Positions 52,412-58,083 of a DNA stretch of 64,000 bases are shown here, in pieces. Location of the stretch: NCBI RefSeq assembly GCF_014696355.1, contig NZ_JACJQA010000046.1, positions 1 to 64,000 on the forward strand, read 5' to 3'. The notes under the pieces are model-generated. The model worked only from the letters and a program-made list of their open reading frames with translations, was not told the DNA's origin and ran no database searches. The position numbers were made by a program, and so were the translations under genes. Every line of letters starts with the position of its first letter. The stretch's first letter is position 1. The stretch is from Pseudanabaena sp. FACHB-1998. GTDB taxonomy: Bacteria; Cyanobacteriota; Cyanobacteriia; Pseudanabaenales; Pseudanabaenaceae.

Positions 52412-53542
52412 ATGACTAATCAGGATAGTCCGATTTTACCTAGATTTCGTATTTATGGGGGGAGTGCAGAGTTTGAAACTGAACGACATCTTGAATGGTT
52501 CTTTTGGTATACGGTTCTTCCCAAAATCGGACTAAAACCACTAAAAAGTCAACACACTTGCAGAGAGGGAATTTGTGACATATTGGCGAAAGGAAATCAG
52601 AATCAACTCGTCATTGTAGAGTTGAAAAATGTCGAAGATTCTCATGTTATTGAACAAATTACTGCATATTTCGATGCCCTTATCGAAGAGAAGCCCTTTA
52701 GTGAACAAATTGACTACACTAAATCTATTGAGCTATACACTGTTTGTCCAACCTATAGGAATCGCACCGTAACAACATTAAAACACCACAAACTTAAATT
52801 TACCCTCTTTTCCTATGCAGTAAAAAGTAGCAATCAAGGCTTTATATTTACATTGTATGAATGGCTCACAAATATAGAAATAGCCAAAATAGACATCCCA
52901 ATAGCTGTTGAAATTGCACCTACACTTAATTTGCCTGATCCTCCAAAAGCTTTTGTTAATCTTTTAGGGAATTGTTCAGAATGTGAAAAAATATGGGCTA
53001 TTGAAATTCGTGATCAGATTTATCAATTTGCTCAATCTTTAAACTATAAAATTTATGAGAAGCCATATGGTAAATGGGTTCGGTTTGAAAGAAACAAACA
53101 AAATCCTATCGCTGAGATAGGTTGGGAAAACAAGAGAGAAAGTCTTGTGGTTTATTTATGGCTTCCCTTTATGACTGTTAATGGGCAATGTAATATGAGG
53201 AGAGATAGCTACAAAAGAACTGCCATGATGAGACTTTGGATAGATGATGGCATTGTTCGATATGTTGGCTATATAGAAAATCAGAGAAAAAGTTGGCTGG
53301 TTGTTACAGATGAAGAAATCCAAAAAGGCAAATTTACTAAACCTGTAAAATTACAGAGAAAAGGTCTGAGTGCTTACTGGAAAGGTCTAGCAATGCCCAC
53401 AGATATTTATCTTGATCTAATGGGATTTACTCCTCGTTCTCATTCTCTAAATTCTTTTGTAGAGTTATCACTTGAACATTCGTTGCAAAGGCTAACTAAA
53501 AGTCGCCAGAAGACTATTATTGAGGTAGAACCTGATTTTTAG
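52412..53542 (+). CDS. NucS/RecB-like PD-(D/E)XK nuclease-domain protein
   Basis: A 376-residue protein. The N-terminal ~150 residues look like the NucS/DUF91 nuclease fold: FETERHLEWFFWY supplies an acidic helix, and EGICDILAKGNQNQLVIVELKN supplies D56, E70 and K72. A conserved-looking helix HVIEQITAYFDAL follows. The C-terminal ~200 residues (CSECEKIWAIEIRDQIYQFA, then KPYGKWVRFERN) resemble a protein-wide DUF I cannot name. The gene is AT-richer than its surroundings and stands alone; a role in repair or defence is possible. Confidence 0.65.
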   Translation: MTNQDSPILPRFRIYGGSAEFETERHLEWFFWYTVLPKIGLKPLKSQHTCREGICDILAKGNQNQLVIVELKNVEDSHVIEQITAYFDALIEEKPFSEQIDYTKSIELYTVCPTYRNRTVTTLKHHKLKFTLFSYAVKSSNQGFIFTLYEWLTNIEIAKIDIPIAVEIAPTLNLPDPPKAFVNLLGNCSECEKIWAIEIRDQIYQFAQSLNYKIYEKPYGKWVRFERNKQNPIAEIGWENKRESLVVYLWLPFMTVNGQCNMRRDSYKRTAMMRLWIDDGIVRYVGYIENQRKSWLVVTDEEIQKGKFTKPVKLQRKGLSAYWKGLAMPTDIYLDLMGFTPRSHSLNSFVELSLEHSLQRLTKSRQKTIIEVEPDF

Positions 53543-53655: not shown

Positions 53656-55713
53656 TTAATTGGGAGCTTGGTTGGTTAACCATTTAAACCATTGTTCTAG
53701 AGAACTCCATCCATTCAAATAATGTAATTGTGGCGCATGGGCGGCGACCAAACTATCGACCGATCGCAAAGCGGCGAATTGTAAACCTAAAAAGCTATCG
53801 ACGGCGGCGTAAGAGTTGCCTAAAGTTGCGGCTCCCGATGCATAGACCCGACCCGCACCATTCCGCAGTTCAGTTATTTCAAAATCATTGCTGACATTCA
53901 ATCTGCCTAGTCCATTAACGGGAATGTTATAGCAATCTAGTAAATCGGCAAATAAAGGATTAGTATGCACCTTGGCATCTAAACCCGTTGCATCAATAAT
54001 AAAATCTGCCGTTAATTGCAAAAGCCCTTCCATTTGACGCGGACGAATATAGGTGGCAGTACGCTGATCGCTTAATTGGTCGACCTTTTCCACATCGCCA
54101 AAGGTAATTTGATACCAACCTTCATTTAAGCCAGTTTGGACAATCCGTTTCCAGTCATGGCGATCGGCGGTAGTTGTGCCGCCCCAATCCTTGAGCAAGG
54201 CTTGACGCGTTTCGGGATCAGCTTCTTCGAGAACTTCCCGTAAGTCTCCGCCCCAACAAGCTTTTGGCCAGTTGAAAGGCTGAAATTCATAATGATTTTC
54301 GACGGTGCGGTGGGCGCGTCCGTGGATATTGCCTTGAGATTTAGGCGATCGCATTAAATGTAAGAGACTAATTTTTTGCTGTGGCGATCGCTGGCGCACT
54401 TCGTAAATACGCTGCACAATCCGTGAAGCCACAATGCCGCGCCCCCGAATTAGGACAGTGCCACCATATTTCTCCAAATGCTCATAAATATGTTCATGTT
54501 CCTCATAGCCATTTACGACGCTCTGAAAGTCTTCCGTTTGACTGCGATAGGCTTGCAGATCTGGCAAAAACTGAATGGCAGCATAGCCCATTGCTAAATG
54601 TAGATACTGAGCGATCAAAAAGGCATGATTGCCTTGACCGAGGGAATAGGCGATCGCATAGCGTCCATCGTTAGTTTTGCGAATGGAGCGCACCCTGCCA
54701 TAGCGATAGATTTTGTCCCAACCGATGCGACTTGCTTCGCGATCGATGGAATCAAACACATTTCCCGAGCGCGGGGTGTAGGTCTCCGCAAGATCGGGTT
54801 CTGCAAAAACTTGCCAGATATACTTAAGCGCTGCATCTAGCTTGCCGCGAGTAAAGTCATGCCAAGCTTCGCGCCATGCGTAACTCGGAAATCCCCAAAT
54901 ATTGTCAGGGCAGGAATCGGAATTGGAGCGCAATCTTTCATGTAAGGGAATTTGGGAATTGAGGCAGAGCCGTTTATATCGCGCATAGGGTTGTGGCTCC
55001 AGTCCGAGAGCGACAATCTGCTCAGCAGCTACTCCAAAAATCCGTAGATAGTCCGCCCAAATATAACTCCCTAATCCACCCCCGATCGCGCCATAGGTAG
55101 TTTCATAGACAGGTAATCCTGTGTTGTGGAGAGATTGCACTTCCAAGGTAGGCAATTGAAAAAATTCTGGTGGAAAAGCGATGACATTTTGGGAGACATT
55201 TCCTGCATTGACTGATTGTGAAGGAGGAGGATTTGTATTTGTCTGGGGTAAACCTGTTTCAGAACTAAATAGAATTGTGGGAGTTGAAGCAGGCGGAATA
55301 AACGTATTACTTTGATTGTTTGGATTGTTTTGAGAACCTGTAATAATTGTTTGGCTAGTGGAAGGTAAGTCAAACGAGATGGTGACTTCATAGCGCCCAA
55401 ACGTCAGGCGATCGCCACTTCCTAAAACTTTGTGTAATTCTGCGCTCCGTTCGACTAAAGAGCCATTCACCAGCACCCCGTTGGTACTATTTTGGTCAAT
55501 CACTACCACCTTTCCTTGGTGATACATCAGCAAGGCATGGTATCGGGATACTGAGCGATCGCTTAGCACCAATGGCGATACTTGATTGCTATCTAGACTT
55601 GTTGGCAAGGAGTTTTGATCTTTACCAATGGCGATCGGTAAGCTCAATTGCAAAGACTGAGGTTGATTCGTATTGATTTCCAGCCAGCTTAATTGGACAA
55701 GGCTCTGCATCAT
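53656..55713 (-). CDS. FHA domain fused to an FAD/NAD(P)-binding oxidoreductase-like domain
   Basis: A 685-residue protein. The N-terminal FHA domain (about 5-115) has LSDRSVSRYHALL and NSTNGVLVNG, a phosphothreonine reader. A Pro/Ser/Asn-rich linker to about 190 follows. The C-terminal ~480 residues look like a flavoprotein: a Rossmann motif YGAIGGGLGSYIW, GGTVLIRGRGIVASRIV, DFIIDATGLDAKV, and RVYASGAATLGNSYAAVDSFLGLQ. Start at one of two adjacent ATGs 3-6 bases after GGGAG; the frame before it is palindrome-derived. The next gene upstream also has an FHA domain. Substrate unknown. Confidence 0.78.
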   Translation of the reverse strand: MMQSLVQLSWLEINTNQPQSLQLSLPIAIGKDQNSLPTSLDSNQVSPLVLSDRSVSRYHALLMYHQGKVVVIDQNSTNGVLVNGSLVERSAELHKVLGSGDRLTFGRYEVTISFDLPSTSQTIITGSQNNPNNQSNTFIPPASTPTILFSSETGLPQTNTNPPPSQSVNAGNVSQNVIAFPPEFFQLPTLEVQSLHNTGLPVYETTYGAIGGGLGSYIWADYLRIFGVAAEQIVALGLEPQPYARYKRLCLNSQIPLHERLRSNSDSCPDNIWGFPSYAWREAWHDFTRGKLDAALKYIWQVFAEPDLAETYTPRSGNVFDSIDREASRIGWDKIYRYGRVRSIRKTNDGRYAIAYSLGQGNHAFLIAQYLHLAMGYAAIQFLPDLQAYRSQTEDFQSVVNGYEEHEHIYEHLEKYGGTVLIRGRGIVASRIVQRIYEVRQRSPQQKISLLHLMRSPKSQGNIHGRAHRTVENHYEFQPFNWPKACWGGDLREVLEEADPETRQALLKDWGGTTTADRHDWKRIVQTGLNEGWYQITFGDVEKVDQLSDQRTATYIRPRQMEGLLQLTADFIIDATGLDAKVHTNPLFADLLDCYNIPVNGLGRLNVSNDFEITELRNGAGRVYASGAATLGNSYAAVDSFLGLQFAALRSVDSLVAAHAPQLHYLNGWSSLEQWFKWLTNQAPN

Positions 55714-55721
55714 TTTCTCCC

Positions 55722-55789
55722 GCCGTAAAATTAGCAATGTTGTGCCAAGAACAACGTTGTGCCAAGAACAACATTGCTAATTTTACGGC
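55722..55789. repeat. palindrome with nested 17-bp tandem repeat
   Basis: Perfect 22-bp arms GCCGTAAAATTAGCAATGTT plus GT. The loop is unusual: it consists mainly of GTGCCAAGAACAACGTTGTG, part of two direct copies of TTGTGCCAAGAACAACG-like sequence. Confidence 0.75.
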
Positions 55790-55842
55790 TTATTTAAACC
55801 CAAAAGAGAATCGACGCTTTGCGCCACCCTTCTATTTTGGGA

Positions 55843-55877
55843 AAGAGAGAGGCGACGCTTTGCGTCGCCTCTCTCTT
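55843..55877. terminator. palindrome after the FHA-zinc-ribbon gene
   Basis: Perfect 16-bp arms AAGAGAGAGGCGACGC around TTT, 7 bases past the stop. A degenerate relative (CCCAAAAGAGAATCGACGC to TTCTATTTTGGG) precedes it at about 55799-55842. Confidence 0.78.
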
Positions 55878-55883
55878 GGGGTT

Positions 55884-56369
55884 TTAATGTGGTGGCAAAA
55901 TGCTGCTAGCCGCACCTGCTAGGGAAGTTCCACACCAAGGACATACGAGAGTAATTTTTTCGTAGGACGAAATCTTGGCACATTTGAAATTGGGGCATTG
56001 CAGACCATAGACAGGATTGTTGCCATGAATTGTAATGGGCGGATTGATCTCAATAGGCGAGATCTGTATTTGGGTGACTTGTAGGAGTTGCTGCCCTAAA
56101 GCGATCGCACTATTGTTTTGTAATTCTATTTCTCCTTGCTCCAAGCGATGACCATCGACTATGGGCGGATTGGACTCACGCATATTTCTAATCCAAAAGC
56201 TCTGCTTTTGCGGATCGAAATAAATCACGACATGCAAGCCTGATACGGTGGGATGGGATAAAACTAAATCACATCGAGCGGGATCGCGACCAATTCTGGC
56301 GATCGCTAGCTCAACTTTAGAGCTTTTCTTAACTCCAGATTCCACCCATTCCAGTGTCAATTCTGCCAT
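55884..56369 (-). CDS. FHA domain protein with C-terminal zinc ribbon
   Basis: A 161-residue protein from ATG 56369. FHA domain in the first ~105 residues: IGRDPARCDLVLSHPTVSGLHVVI keeps the Gly-Arg, Ser and His that read phosphothreonine. The C-terminus holds CPNFKC and CPWCG, a four-cysteine ribbon, with a short tail. It lies upstream of the FHA-flavoprotein gene on the same strand with ~150 bases of palindromes between. It may be a partner in the same phospho-signalling step. Confidence 0.82.
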   Translation of the reverse strand: MAELTLEWVESGVKKSSKVELAIARIGRDPARCDLVLSHPTVSGLHVVIYFDPQKQSFWIRNMRESNPPIVDGHRLEQGEIELQNNSAIALGQQLLQVTQIQISPIEINPPITIHGNNPVYGLQCPNFKCAKISSYEKITLVCPWCGTSLAGAASSILPPH

Positions 56370-56493: not shown

Positions 56494-56589
56494 TACTCCC
56501 TTCCCACCCAAGAATTAGCTATGCGGCGCGAAGCGCCGCATAGCTAATTCTTGGGTTTTAATGTCTCTTTTTAGACTGGGAAGGGAGTA
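56494..56589. mobile_element. MITE-like element, end-type II, copy 2
   Basis: Perfect 13-bp terminal inverted repeat TACTCCCTTCCCA and TGGGAAGGGAGTA. The palindrome has arms CCCAAGAATTAGCTATGCGG plus CGC around GAA. The block CCCTTCCCACYCAAGAA is shared with 25007-25131. The 56370-56623 gap holds nothing else I can name. Confidence 0.85.
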
Positions 56590-56623: not shown

Positions 56624-57049
56624 ATGACTCCTACATTAATTGGAAGATGGCAAACTCGTCTCTTACTTTTAGGTACATTAGGCGTAATTGTGACCATTCC
56701 CTTTAGTCTCAGTGGAGATAGCTTGTATTTTCAAATCTTGCTATCGGTCGCCTTTTTAGGATGTATTTGGGATATTGGCTATAACTTCTTGCAAACCCTG
56801 CGATGGGATCGAGATTGGTCGGCACTTTTACAATTAGCAGCAGGTATATGGGAAGCAATTTTTATTTATTTTCCCTTTAAGTTTCTAATTAGAGATCTCT
56901 TAAAACTTAACTGGCTGAGTTCAGAAATTCCCCTAGATAAATTTTTATGGCATTACTGCTGCGTGTGGTTAGCAGTATTTATAGCTTCACAAACGATCAT
57001 GCGAGTAATTTTTCCGCGTTGGCGATTTCTAGGAGGTCAATGGTTTTAG
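56624..57049 (+). CDS. hypothetical membrane protein
   Basis: A 141-residue protein with four hydrophobic segments (LLLLGTLGVIVTIPFSL; FQILLSVAFLGCIWDIGY; LLQLAAGIWEAIFIYFPFKFL; WHYCCVWLAVFIASQTIMRVI). Charged loops are few. It ends in a basic RWRFLGGQW. I do not know the family, though the plan is seen in many cyanobacterial proteins. The stop is 2 bases before a palindrome. Confidence 0.7.
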   Translation: MTPTLIGRWQTRLLLLGTLGVIVTIPFSLSGDSLYFQILLSVAFLGCIWDIGYNFLQTLRWDRDWSALLQLAAGIWEAIFIYFPFKFLIRDLLKLNWLSSEIPLDKFLWHYCCVWLAVFIASQTIMRVIFPRWRFLGGQWF

Positions 57050-57492: not shown

Positions 57493-58083
57493 ATGGATGC
57501 AACCCTTACTCGTCAACTTGTATGGCTAGACTATCGCTTAGCTCTGCTATTTTTAGTTTTTGTTCCCTTTGGATTGTTATGCTGGGCTTTGCGAACTAAT
57601 GTCGAAGCAATCAAGCGATCGCTACTTTTATATTGGCGAGTTGCAAGTCTGCTATTGATTACTATTTATTTAGCGATTGGTAGTTTAGGCATATCTTTTA
57701 TTTCTGGGATTGTTGCTCAGCTTTTAATTGTTTTGGCACTTTGGTTTTGGCAAGACTTAAATGAAGATATCGAAGCATCTCGCAAAAGTATCCAACCAAT
57801 TTACTTAGGATGGCGTTGGGCAACTACTATTTATTGTGGTTTAAGTATTGCTTTTCGACTTCTATTTGCAAATTGTGCTTTTAAAAGTGCTGAACAACTT
57901 AGCGATGTGTGTCAAATTTGGTTCGAGCCGCCCTTGAGTTTGGCTACGACTTTCCATAATGGAGTACCTGTAGAAACTTTGGCATTTGCAGGTGCGGTTG
58001 GTGGAATTGTATATGTCTTATATTTATTCTTCTTCCTTGCCTTTAGCCTACCGAAAAGCGGTCGCATTGCTTTTCGAGACTGA
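57493..58083 (+). CDS. DUF3177 membrane protein
   Basis: A 196-residue protein with about five hydrophobic helices, of the cyanobacterial DUF3177 family: LVWLDYRLALLFLVFVPFGLL, LLLYWRVASLLLITIYLAIGSL, LWFWQDLNEDIE and WRWATTIYC. The C-terminal helix VGGIVYVLYLFFFLAF ends SLPKSGRIAFRD. The last ~15 codons plus the terminator are repeated in tandem directly downstream (58128-58215), as a non-coding copy. Confidence 0.82.
   Translation: MDATLTRQLVWLDYRLALLFLVFVPFGLLCWALRTNVEAIKRSLLLYWRVASLLLITIYLAIGSLGISFISGIVAQLLIVLALWFWQDLNEDIEASRKSIQPIYLGWRWATTIYCGLSIAFRLLFANCAFKSAEQLSDVCQIWFEPPLSLATTFHNGVPVETLAFAGAVGGIVYVLYLFFFLAFSLPKSGRIAFRD

What the first reader, a model, noticed from the sequence alone, without database searches (positions are those of the whole stretch)
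53656..56369. FHA-flavoprotein fusion beside an FHA-zinc-ribbon protein
A phosphothreonine reader fused to a Rossmann flavoprotein-like domain of ~480 residues, next to a second FHA protein with a four-Cys ribbon, is an unusual pair. It suggests a redox enzyme recruited or controlled by Ser/Thr phosphorylation. Candidate for an undescribed regulatory module.
Basis: partly seen in the sequence, partly recalled or inferred. Interest (0 to 1): 0.66.

Follow-up and report, generated by a model that had tools for sequence, protein, structure and literature searches.

The report
Phosphothreonine-reading flavoenzyme with membrane partner
Many cyanobacteria carry a conserved, apparently unstudied gene set: a probable vitamin-B2-type redox enzyme fused to a domain that recognises phosphorylated proteins, a second such reader, and a small membrane protein, suggesting membrane redox chemistry steered by protein phosphorylation.

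Summary
Gene A (53656-55713, -) has an FHA domain, a variable linker and a ~490-residue domain without a significant Pfam or NCBIfam match; its AlphaFold model is a two-dinucleotide-binding flavoprotein. Gene B (55884-56369, -) is FHA plus four Cys. B lies upstream of A, same strand, in 78 of 80 cyanobacterial loci (77 within 517 bp).

In 292 cyanobacterial genomes A occurs in 47 and C in 46, all 46 also carrying A. C lies within 5 kb of the best A copy in 36 of the 46. In Nonomuraea (Actinomycetota) an FHA-less A directly abuts a C homologue. So the core may be flavoenzyme + membrane protein, with FHA domains as a cyanobacterial addition.

Best reading: an NAD(P)H/FAD enzyme of monooxygenase-like fold acting at the membrane with C, coupled by FHA domains to Ser/Thr phosphorylation. 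Flavin binding, reaction, substrate, A-C contact and phospho-binding are inferred. No kinase is constantly linked. Nine literature searches showed no account of it; the ingredients are known, the combination appears new.

The parts
53656..55713 (-). gene A: FHA-flavoprotein fusion, 685 aa
   Evidence: ORF; FHA; fold; relatives
55396..55581 (-). FHA domain of A (residues 45-106)
   Evidence: PF00498 E 2.9e-13; same coordinates
55246..55275 (-). conserved short motif I147-x-F149-x3-T153-x2-P156 in the otherwise variable linker
   Evidence: I147 and F149 invariant, T153 and P156 at least 90% in 45 sequences; weaker in the wider set
53656..55128 (-). catalytic flavoprotein-like domain of A (about residues 196-685)
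   Evidence: no significant Pfam/NCBIfam
55066..55083 (-). first dinucleotide motif G211-x-G213-x-G215-S216 (FAD side)
   Evidence: invariant in 24 aligned sequences including Nonomuraea
54427..54444 (-). second dinucleotide motif G424-x-G426-I-V-A429 (NAD(P)H side)
   Evidence: invariant in the same 24
53983..53994 (-). D574-x-T576-G577 motif
   Evidence: invariant in the same 24
55884..56369 (-). gene B: FHA + zinc-ribbon-like protein, 161 aa
   Evidence: same strand, upstream of A in 78 of 80 loci
56094..56297 (-). FHA domain of B
55932..55997 (-). four-Cys ribbon of B (C125, C130, C143, C146)
   Evidence: alignment A2
56624..57049 (+). gene C: predicted four-helix membrane protein, 141 aa, divergent from B in this window
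   Evidence: present in 46 of 292 genomes, never without A; model; no Pfam/NCBIfam match at E <= 0.1

Best explanation
A three-protein module. A's C-terminal domain is an FAD enzyme that uses NAD(P)H, built like single-component monooxygenases (N-hydroxylase/FMO type) rather than a disulfide reductase. It works at the membrane with C, its dedicated four-helix partner (anchor, substrate channel or electron/quinone contact). Cyanobacteria added an FHA domain to A and a second FHA protein, B, so that phosphorylation by one of the many Hanks-type kinases encoded elsewhere recruits or switches the enzyme. The conserved Thr motif in A's own linker is a candidate ligand of A's or B's FHA domain. Shown by computation: the gene set, its linkage and co-inheritance, the predicted folds, FHA ligand residues, absence of CxxC, the FHA-less A-C pair in an actinobacterium. 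Inferred: flavin and NADPH binding, monooxygenase-type chemistry, physical A-C contact, phospho-control, and the order of evolutionary events.
For: Fold: best Foldseek matches are SidA/PvdA/KtzI/DfoA N-hydroxylases, E from 1.8e-15, TM 0.57-0.69 by target; VIA Z about 19-23 to YpdA, FMO-type enzymes, N-hydroxylases, thioredoxin reductases, FNR. Motifs kept across two phyla, 87 invariant residues in 24 sequences. No CxxC in any of 24, and none of the window protein's four Cys is kept in Nonomuraea, against dithiol catalysis. Arg455 after the second motif is invariant, which fits NADPH. A-C: 46 of 46 C genomes have A; phi 0.99, against 0.72 for A with PF03574 (recalled as the HetR family) in the same 292 genomes. 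C is adjacent to or overlaps A in several distant lineages (e.g. L106, L108, L114, L115) and in Nonomuraea (C homology E 1e-16). A-B: 78 of 80 loci, all one strand. FHA residues kept in 111 of 114. The A profile's best solved FHA matches include GarA (E 7.6e-10) and OdhI (4.1e-9), which regulate enzymes.
Against: Model confidence is moderate (mean pLDDT 72, pTM 0.59) and low (46-56) in the conserved RSxS...PDNxWG segment that may line the active site. Two-dinucleotide folds serve many chemistries, so the reaction is not fixed by fold, and the highest VIA rows are reductases. The acidic residue after beta-2 is not conserved in all sequences. No constantly linked kinase. In B the SRxH Arg is mostly Gly. 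Only 91 of 114 linkers match my loose motif pattern, some of these spuriously. C was seen in only 40 of the 80 named loci within the fetched DNA (many flanks are cut by contig ends), is often 1-3 kb from A with other genes between, and was not found in G278, which has A (one search had no positive control). Seven of 47 A genomes lack a linked B (my reading).
Confidence: 0.45

Rival explanations
1. A is an NAD(P)H dehydrogenase/reductase (FNR, YpdA or NDH-2 like) that feeds electrons into the membrane through C, without inserting oxygen.
For: Highest VIA Z values are reductases: YpdA 23.4; FNR 20.9 and TrxR 20.6 are level with FMO and N-hydroxylases. Membrane partner C with invariant charged and Trp residues; C near A in many lineages.
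Against: Foldseek's leading rows are N-hydroxylases; no redox Cys pair; C has one nearly invariant His (H110) and no obvious paired heme or iron-sulfur ligands.
Confidence: 0.27
2. A is catalytically dead: a flavin- or nucleotide-binding scaffold that senses NAD(P)H or redox state and relays it through FHA domains.
For: No substrate pathway genes are constantly linked in the clustered loci; fused to a signalling domain.
Against: 87 residues invariant in 24 sequences from two phyla, many outside the nucleotide motifs, and an FHA-free form with C.
Confidence: 0.15
3. Linkage and co-occurrence of A, B and C reflect shared ancestry of a clade, not a joint function.
For: Most carriers also have PF03574 (42 of 47), a marker I recall as HetR; one genome, G278, has A without C.
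Against: 21 of 63 PF03574 genomes lack A. A and C presence agree in at least seven families that hold carriers and non-carriers, with G278 as the one exception (labels). In five genomes the best A and a C lie over 500 kb apart yet both are kept (two of these five have a second, linked A-C copy). The pairing recurs in Actinomycetota.
Confidence: 0.08

Closest known systems
N-hydroxylating flavin monooxygenases (SidA, PvdA, KtzI, DfoA)
   Same: Two-dinucleotide-binding fold over about 345-384 aligned residues, Z about 19-20.6, 11-16% identity; two GxGxx(S/A) motifs and a D-x-T-G segment.
   Different: No match to a Pfam family of this class at E <= 1; FHA domain; membrane partner; conserved RSxS...PDNxWG segment.
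Bacillithiol disulfide reductase YpdA, thioredoxin reductases, TrxR-like FNR
   Same: Same overall fold, highest VIA Z 23.4 for YpdA.
   Different: No CxxC; A's domain is roughly 150-170 residues longer than these chains.
GarA / OdhI
   Same: Among the closest solved FHA domains by profile (E 7.6e-10 and 4.1e-9); OdhI and GarA bind and inhibit an enzyme through FHA (PMC10415282, passages). Closure on their own phosphothreonine is recalled.
   Different: They are free regulators that bind another enzyme; here FHA and enzyme are one chain. By single sequence the best FHA match is another protein (2n84).
FHA-containing cyanobacterial Ser/Thr kinases (PMC1262709, passages seen)
   Same: Cyanobacterial FHA fusions with GR, SxxH, NG residues.
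   Different: Catalytic partner is a flavoprotein, not a kinase.

Membership tests
FHA domain (PF00498) | Profile match over the curated cut-off | tested here: met
   A 50.5 bits, B 51.7 bits, cut-off 20.7; 45 of 45 A and 31 of 31 B members match at the E-values set
FHA domain (PF00498) | Phosphothreonine ligand residues SRxH and NG | tested here: met
   A: 111 of 114 for each pattern; the narrow pattern allows Thr for Ser and misses one true SRxH, L066. B: Ser and His kept, the Arg mostly Gly, so B is only partly canonical
FHA domain (PF00498) | Binds phosphothreonine | not testable with these tools
   needs a binding assay
Two-dinucleotide-binding-domain flavoproteins | Fold with FAD and NAD(P)H Rossmann domains | tested here: met
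   Model only: Z up to 23.4, about 294-384 residues aligned in the rows shown
Two-dinucleotide-binding-domain flavoproteins | Two GxGxx(G/S/A) motifs | tested here: met
   G211-x-G213-x-x-S216 and G424-x-G426-x-x-A429 invariant in 24
Two-dinucleotide-binding-domain flavoproteins | Bound flavin | not testable with these tools
   needs purified protein
Lys/Orn N-hydroxylases (NMO) | Match to a Pfam model of the family | tested here: not met
   no such family among the 16 listed at E <= 1 for 45 members
Lys/Orn N-hydroxylases (NMO) | N-hydroxylation of a primary amine | not testable with these tools
   membership not claimed; fold resemblance only
Thioredoxin reductase type | Redox-active CxxC | tested here: not met
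   no CxxC in any of 24 sequences; none of the window protein's four Cys is kept in Nonomuraea
Zinc ribbon | Four metal-ligand residues in two knuckles | tested here: inconclusive
   C125/C130/C143/C146 conserved; only weak ribbon-type Pfam matches in 1-2 of 31 members; metal not tested
Known anti-phage defence proteins | PADLOC model match at E <= 0.01 | tested here: not met
   0 families for A, B, C

The most novel reading that the evidence does not exclude
A and C form a previously undescribed class of membrane-tethered NAD(P)H flavoenzyme shared by Cyanobacteria and Actinomycetota. Cyanobacteria placed it under direct phosphothreonine control by fusing an FHA domain to the enzyme; in the boldest form the FHA domain delivers the flavin chemistry to phosphorylated membrane proteins, so that a kinase marks targets for oxidation (a MICAL-like logic, recalled).
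Probability: 0.22. Interest if true: 0.8.

Novelty: new variant of a known kind. Interest (0 to 1): 0.57.

Why it matters
Kinase-to-metabolism control in bacteria through FHA proteins is known for free regulators such as OdhI and GarA. A redox enzyme carrying its own phosphothreonine reader would make that coupling testable in one polypeptide. Carriers fall in 13 of the sampled cyanobacterial families and include Nostoc and Anabaena species. A's main domain and C have no Pfam family, and A-C is a strong guilt-by-association pair for an unknown membrane protein.

Tried and rejected
Phage or plasmid cargo: no match in phage records; in viral contigs 9 stretches matched a pattern and none was confirmed (two patterns only); one plasmid-collection record, an 11.85 Mb Nonomuraea replicon. 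Defence system: no PADLOC match. Kinase in the operon: a narrow regular expression gave 5 of 80 loci; a similarity search seeded with those and one more gave 8 of 80, at scattered positions; flanks were at most 8 kb and often cut. Disulfide reductase: no CxxC. Filament/heterocyst marker as the explanation of distribution: A overlaps PF03574 in 42 of 47, but 21 of 63 PF03574 genomes lack A. C fold: no Foldseek match at E <= 0.001 and no VIA Z of 5 or more, no PDB sequence match at E <= 1; this does not show the fold is new. A fused A-C frame in one paralogue (G255, L119) was not used as evidence, because A is cut short there and may be decayed. The linker's first Thr (STIxF) as phospho-site was dropped: it is Gln, Ala, Ser or Val in many sequences; T153 is steadier. 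Linkage to endonuclease V, a GDSL lipase and others was set aside as synteny of some lineages. I used the second structure prediction for C rather than for the catalytic domain alone.

Notebook entry 1 counts the A-B pair as 76 of 78 and calls C next to A in most loci; the figures in this report (78 of 80; C in 40 of 80 fetched loci) replace it.

Literature: nine searches and passages of three papers (PMC1262709; PMC10415282; PMC6213207); no description of this fusion or module was seen. For the other papers only search listings were seen. Most subscription papers are not held.

Full report
Observation. Gene A runs 55713 to 53656 on the minus strand (685 aa), gene B 56369 to 55884 (161 aa). 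Pfam finds an FHA domain in each and nothing at E <= 1 in A's C-terminal part for the window protein; 13 of 45 relatives have a sub-threshold FAD_oxidored match (best E 0.012) and 3 a Trp_halogenase match (best 0.011). NCBIfam gives only matches in the FHA and adjoining part of A. B ends in four cysteines, three invariant and one at least 90% conserved in 31 aligned sequences.

Fold of the C-terminal domain. An AlphaFold2 model on 45 sequences has mean pLDDT 72 and pTM 0.59. Foldseek's leading PDB rows are ornithine, cadaverine and related N-hydroxylases (E from 1.8e-15), with dihydrolipoamide dehydrogenases among the rows below. VIA alignment of the same candidates gives Z 23.4 for YpdA and about 19-21 for FMO-type enzymes, FNR, thioredoxin reductases and N-hydroxylases. 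An alignment of 24 sequences, one of them from Nonomuraea, keeps 87 residues invariant, among them G211-x-G213-x-G215-S216, G424-x-G426-I-V-A429, R455 and D574-x-T576-G577. There is no CxxC in any of the 24, which speaks against thioredoxin-reductase-type catalysis. I favour monooxygenase-like over reductase on the Foldseek rank and the missing cysteines, without strong conviction; the VIA order leans the other way.

The pair is conserved. A scan of the genome collection confirmed 263 stretches that encode a relative; the best 80 were kept, all with cyanobacterial titles (two of them, L056 and L058, are identical DNA). In those 80 loci B is found in 78, always on A's strand; the gap is at most 517 bp in 77 and 5.1 kb in one, L053. 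Of the two without B, L026 begins 38 bases before A, so B could not be seen; L008 (Pseudanabaena mucicola) has neither B nor C in its 17.5 kb. In the 292-genome phylum sample I read B near A in 40 of 47 A-carrying genomes; the seven without it carry A copies only 50-53% identical to the window's, four of which I inspected (L111, L112, L113, L120).

A third gene. C, the 141-residue protein at 56624-57049, has no Pfam or NCBIfam match at E <= 0.1 and is predicted as four long helices (mean pLDDT 78); no PDB match stood out. In the same 292 genomes C is present in 46 and A in 47; all 46 C genomes have A. The exception, G278, has A but no C by sequence or profile (the profile search had no positive control). 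The agreement (phi 0.99) is closer than that of A with PF03574, which I recall as the HetR family and ran as a control (phi 0.72; 42 shared, 5 A-only, 21 PF03574-only). Presence and absence agree in at least seven families that contain both carriers and non-carriers (f1, f2, f4, f7, f13, f14, f21; G278 in f7 is the exception), including the window's own genus, where G193 and G282 lack A, B and C. C is within 5 kb of the best A copy in 36 of 46 genomes. In the other ten it is over 500 kb away in five, 8.6 kb in one, and on another contig in four, where the true distance is unknown; two of the five (G174, G255) have a second A copy next to a C. So the co-occurrence is not only linkage. In the 80 named loci C lay within the fetched DNA in 40, directly downstream in some and 1-3 kb off with other genes between in many Nostoc-type loci; flanks were at most 8 kb and often cut by contig ends.

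Outside cyanobacteria. A tblastn search of plasmid records found one match, an 11.85 Mb replicon of Nonomuraea gerenzanensis (Actinomycetota): 38.5% identity over 99% of the query. There the domain stands alone, without FHA (505 aa, no Pfam match at E <= 0.5), and a C homologue follows; if it starts at the TTG that the alignment suggests, it overlaps A's stop codon (C against C 34% identity, E 1e-16). This suggests that A-C is the older unit and that FHA and B are later regulatory additions, although one genome cannot exclude the opposite order. The tools did not let me survey Actinomycetota.

Phospho-control. A's FHA has (S/T)RxH and N-G patterns in 111 of 114 sequences each, and among solved structures its profile matches GarA and OdhI among the best; by single sequence other FHA proteins rank first. 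The linker between FHA and enzyme is variable and of low confidence except for I147-x-F149-x3-T153-x2-P156: two invariant and two nearly invariant positions in 45 sequences; in the wider set it weakens (L106 has Val for Phe; 91 of 114 match a loose pattern, some spuriously). T153 is a candidate phospho-site. That GarA and OdhI close on their own phosphothreonine is recalled; the passages seen of PMC10415282 cover FHA binding to the target enzyme. B's FHA keeps Ser and His but mostly has Gly for the SRxH Arg. No kinase is conserved nearby: 8 of 80 loci by similarity. The genome has 13 FHA and 35 Pkinase matches, 33 of the latter over the cut-off, so a kinase in trans is plausible.

Mechanism and standing. 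The best-supported account is a membrane-associated NAD(P)H/FAD enzyme working with C and placed under FHA control in cyanobacteria. Shown: genes, linkage, co-inheritance, predicted folds, motif conservation. Inferred: flavin binding, reaction, contact with C, phospho-dependence. In nine literature searches and passages of three papers I saw no account of it. I rate it a new variant of a known kind: each domain class is familiar, the architecture and the A-C unit are not described in what I could read.

Noticed in passing
window 55714-55880: The gap between B and A holds a 34-nt-arm inverted repeat (55722-55789, 85% complementary) and a perfect 16-nt one (55843-55877); parts of this stretch match other places in the genome, while in two near relatives (L002, L006) B and A are 4 nt apart. 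Looks like repeat elements inserted in a tight operon.
   Followed up: partly
window 56506-56556: Perfect 24-nt inverted repeat with a 3-nt loop between the divergent B and C genes.
   Followed up: no
L067:6064-6729 and its cluster: A gene family upstream of A in 60 of 78 clustered loci; the one member tested is Endonuclease V, PF04493. Not in the Pseudanabaena loci L002-L008 as listed.
   Followed up: partly
L119 (G255): A second A copy lacks its C-terminal part and shares one 735-aa frame with a full-length C match: a natural A-C fusion or a decaying paralogue.
   Followed up: no
L007:7473-9482: A is split into two frames (470 and 180 aa) in Pseudanabaena ULC068bin1; mutation or assembly error.
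   Followed up: no
window 52412-53542: 376-aa protein with a NucS C-terminal-type domain, PF01939 just over the cut-off (26.1 against 24 bits), convergent with A.
   Followed up: no
window 57493-58083: DUF3177 protein (E 7.1e-68) next to C.
   Followed up: no
L111, L112, L113, L118, L120: Divergent A copies (48-52% identical) in unnamed family f7 genomes keep C next door but have no B in the fetched stretch.
   Followed up: partly
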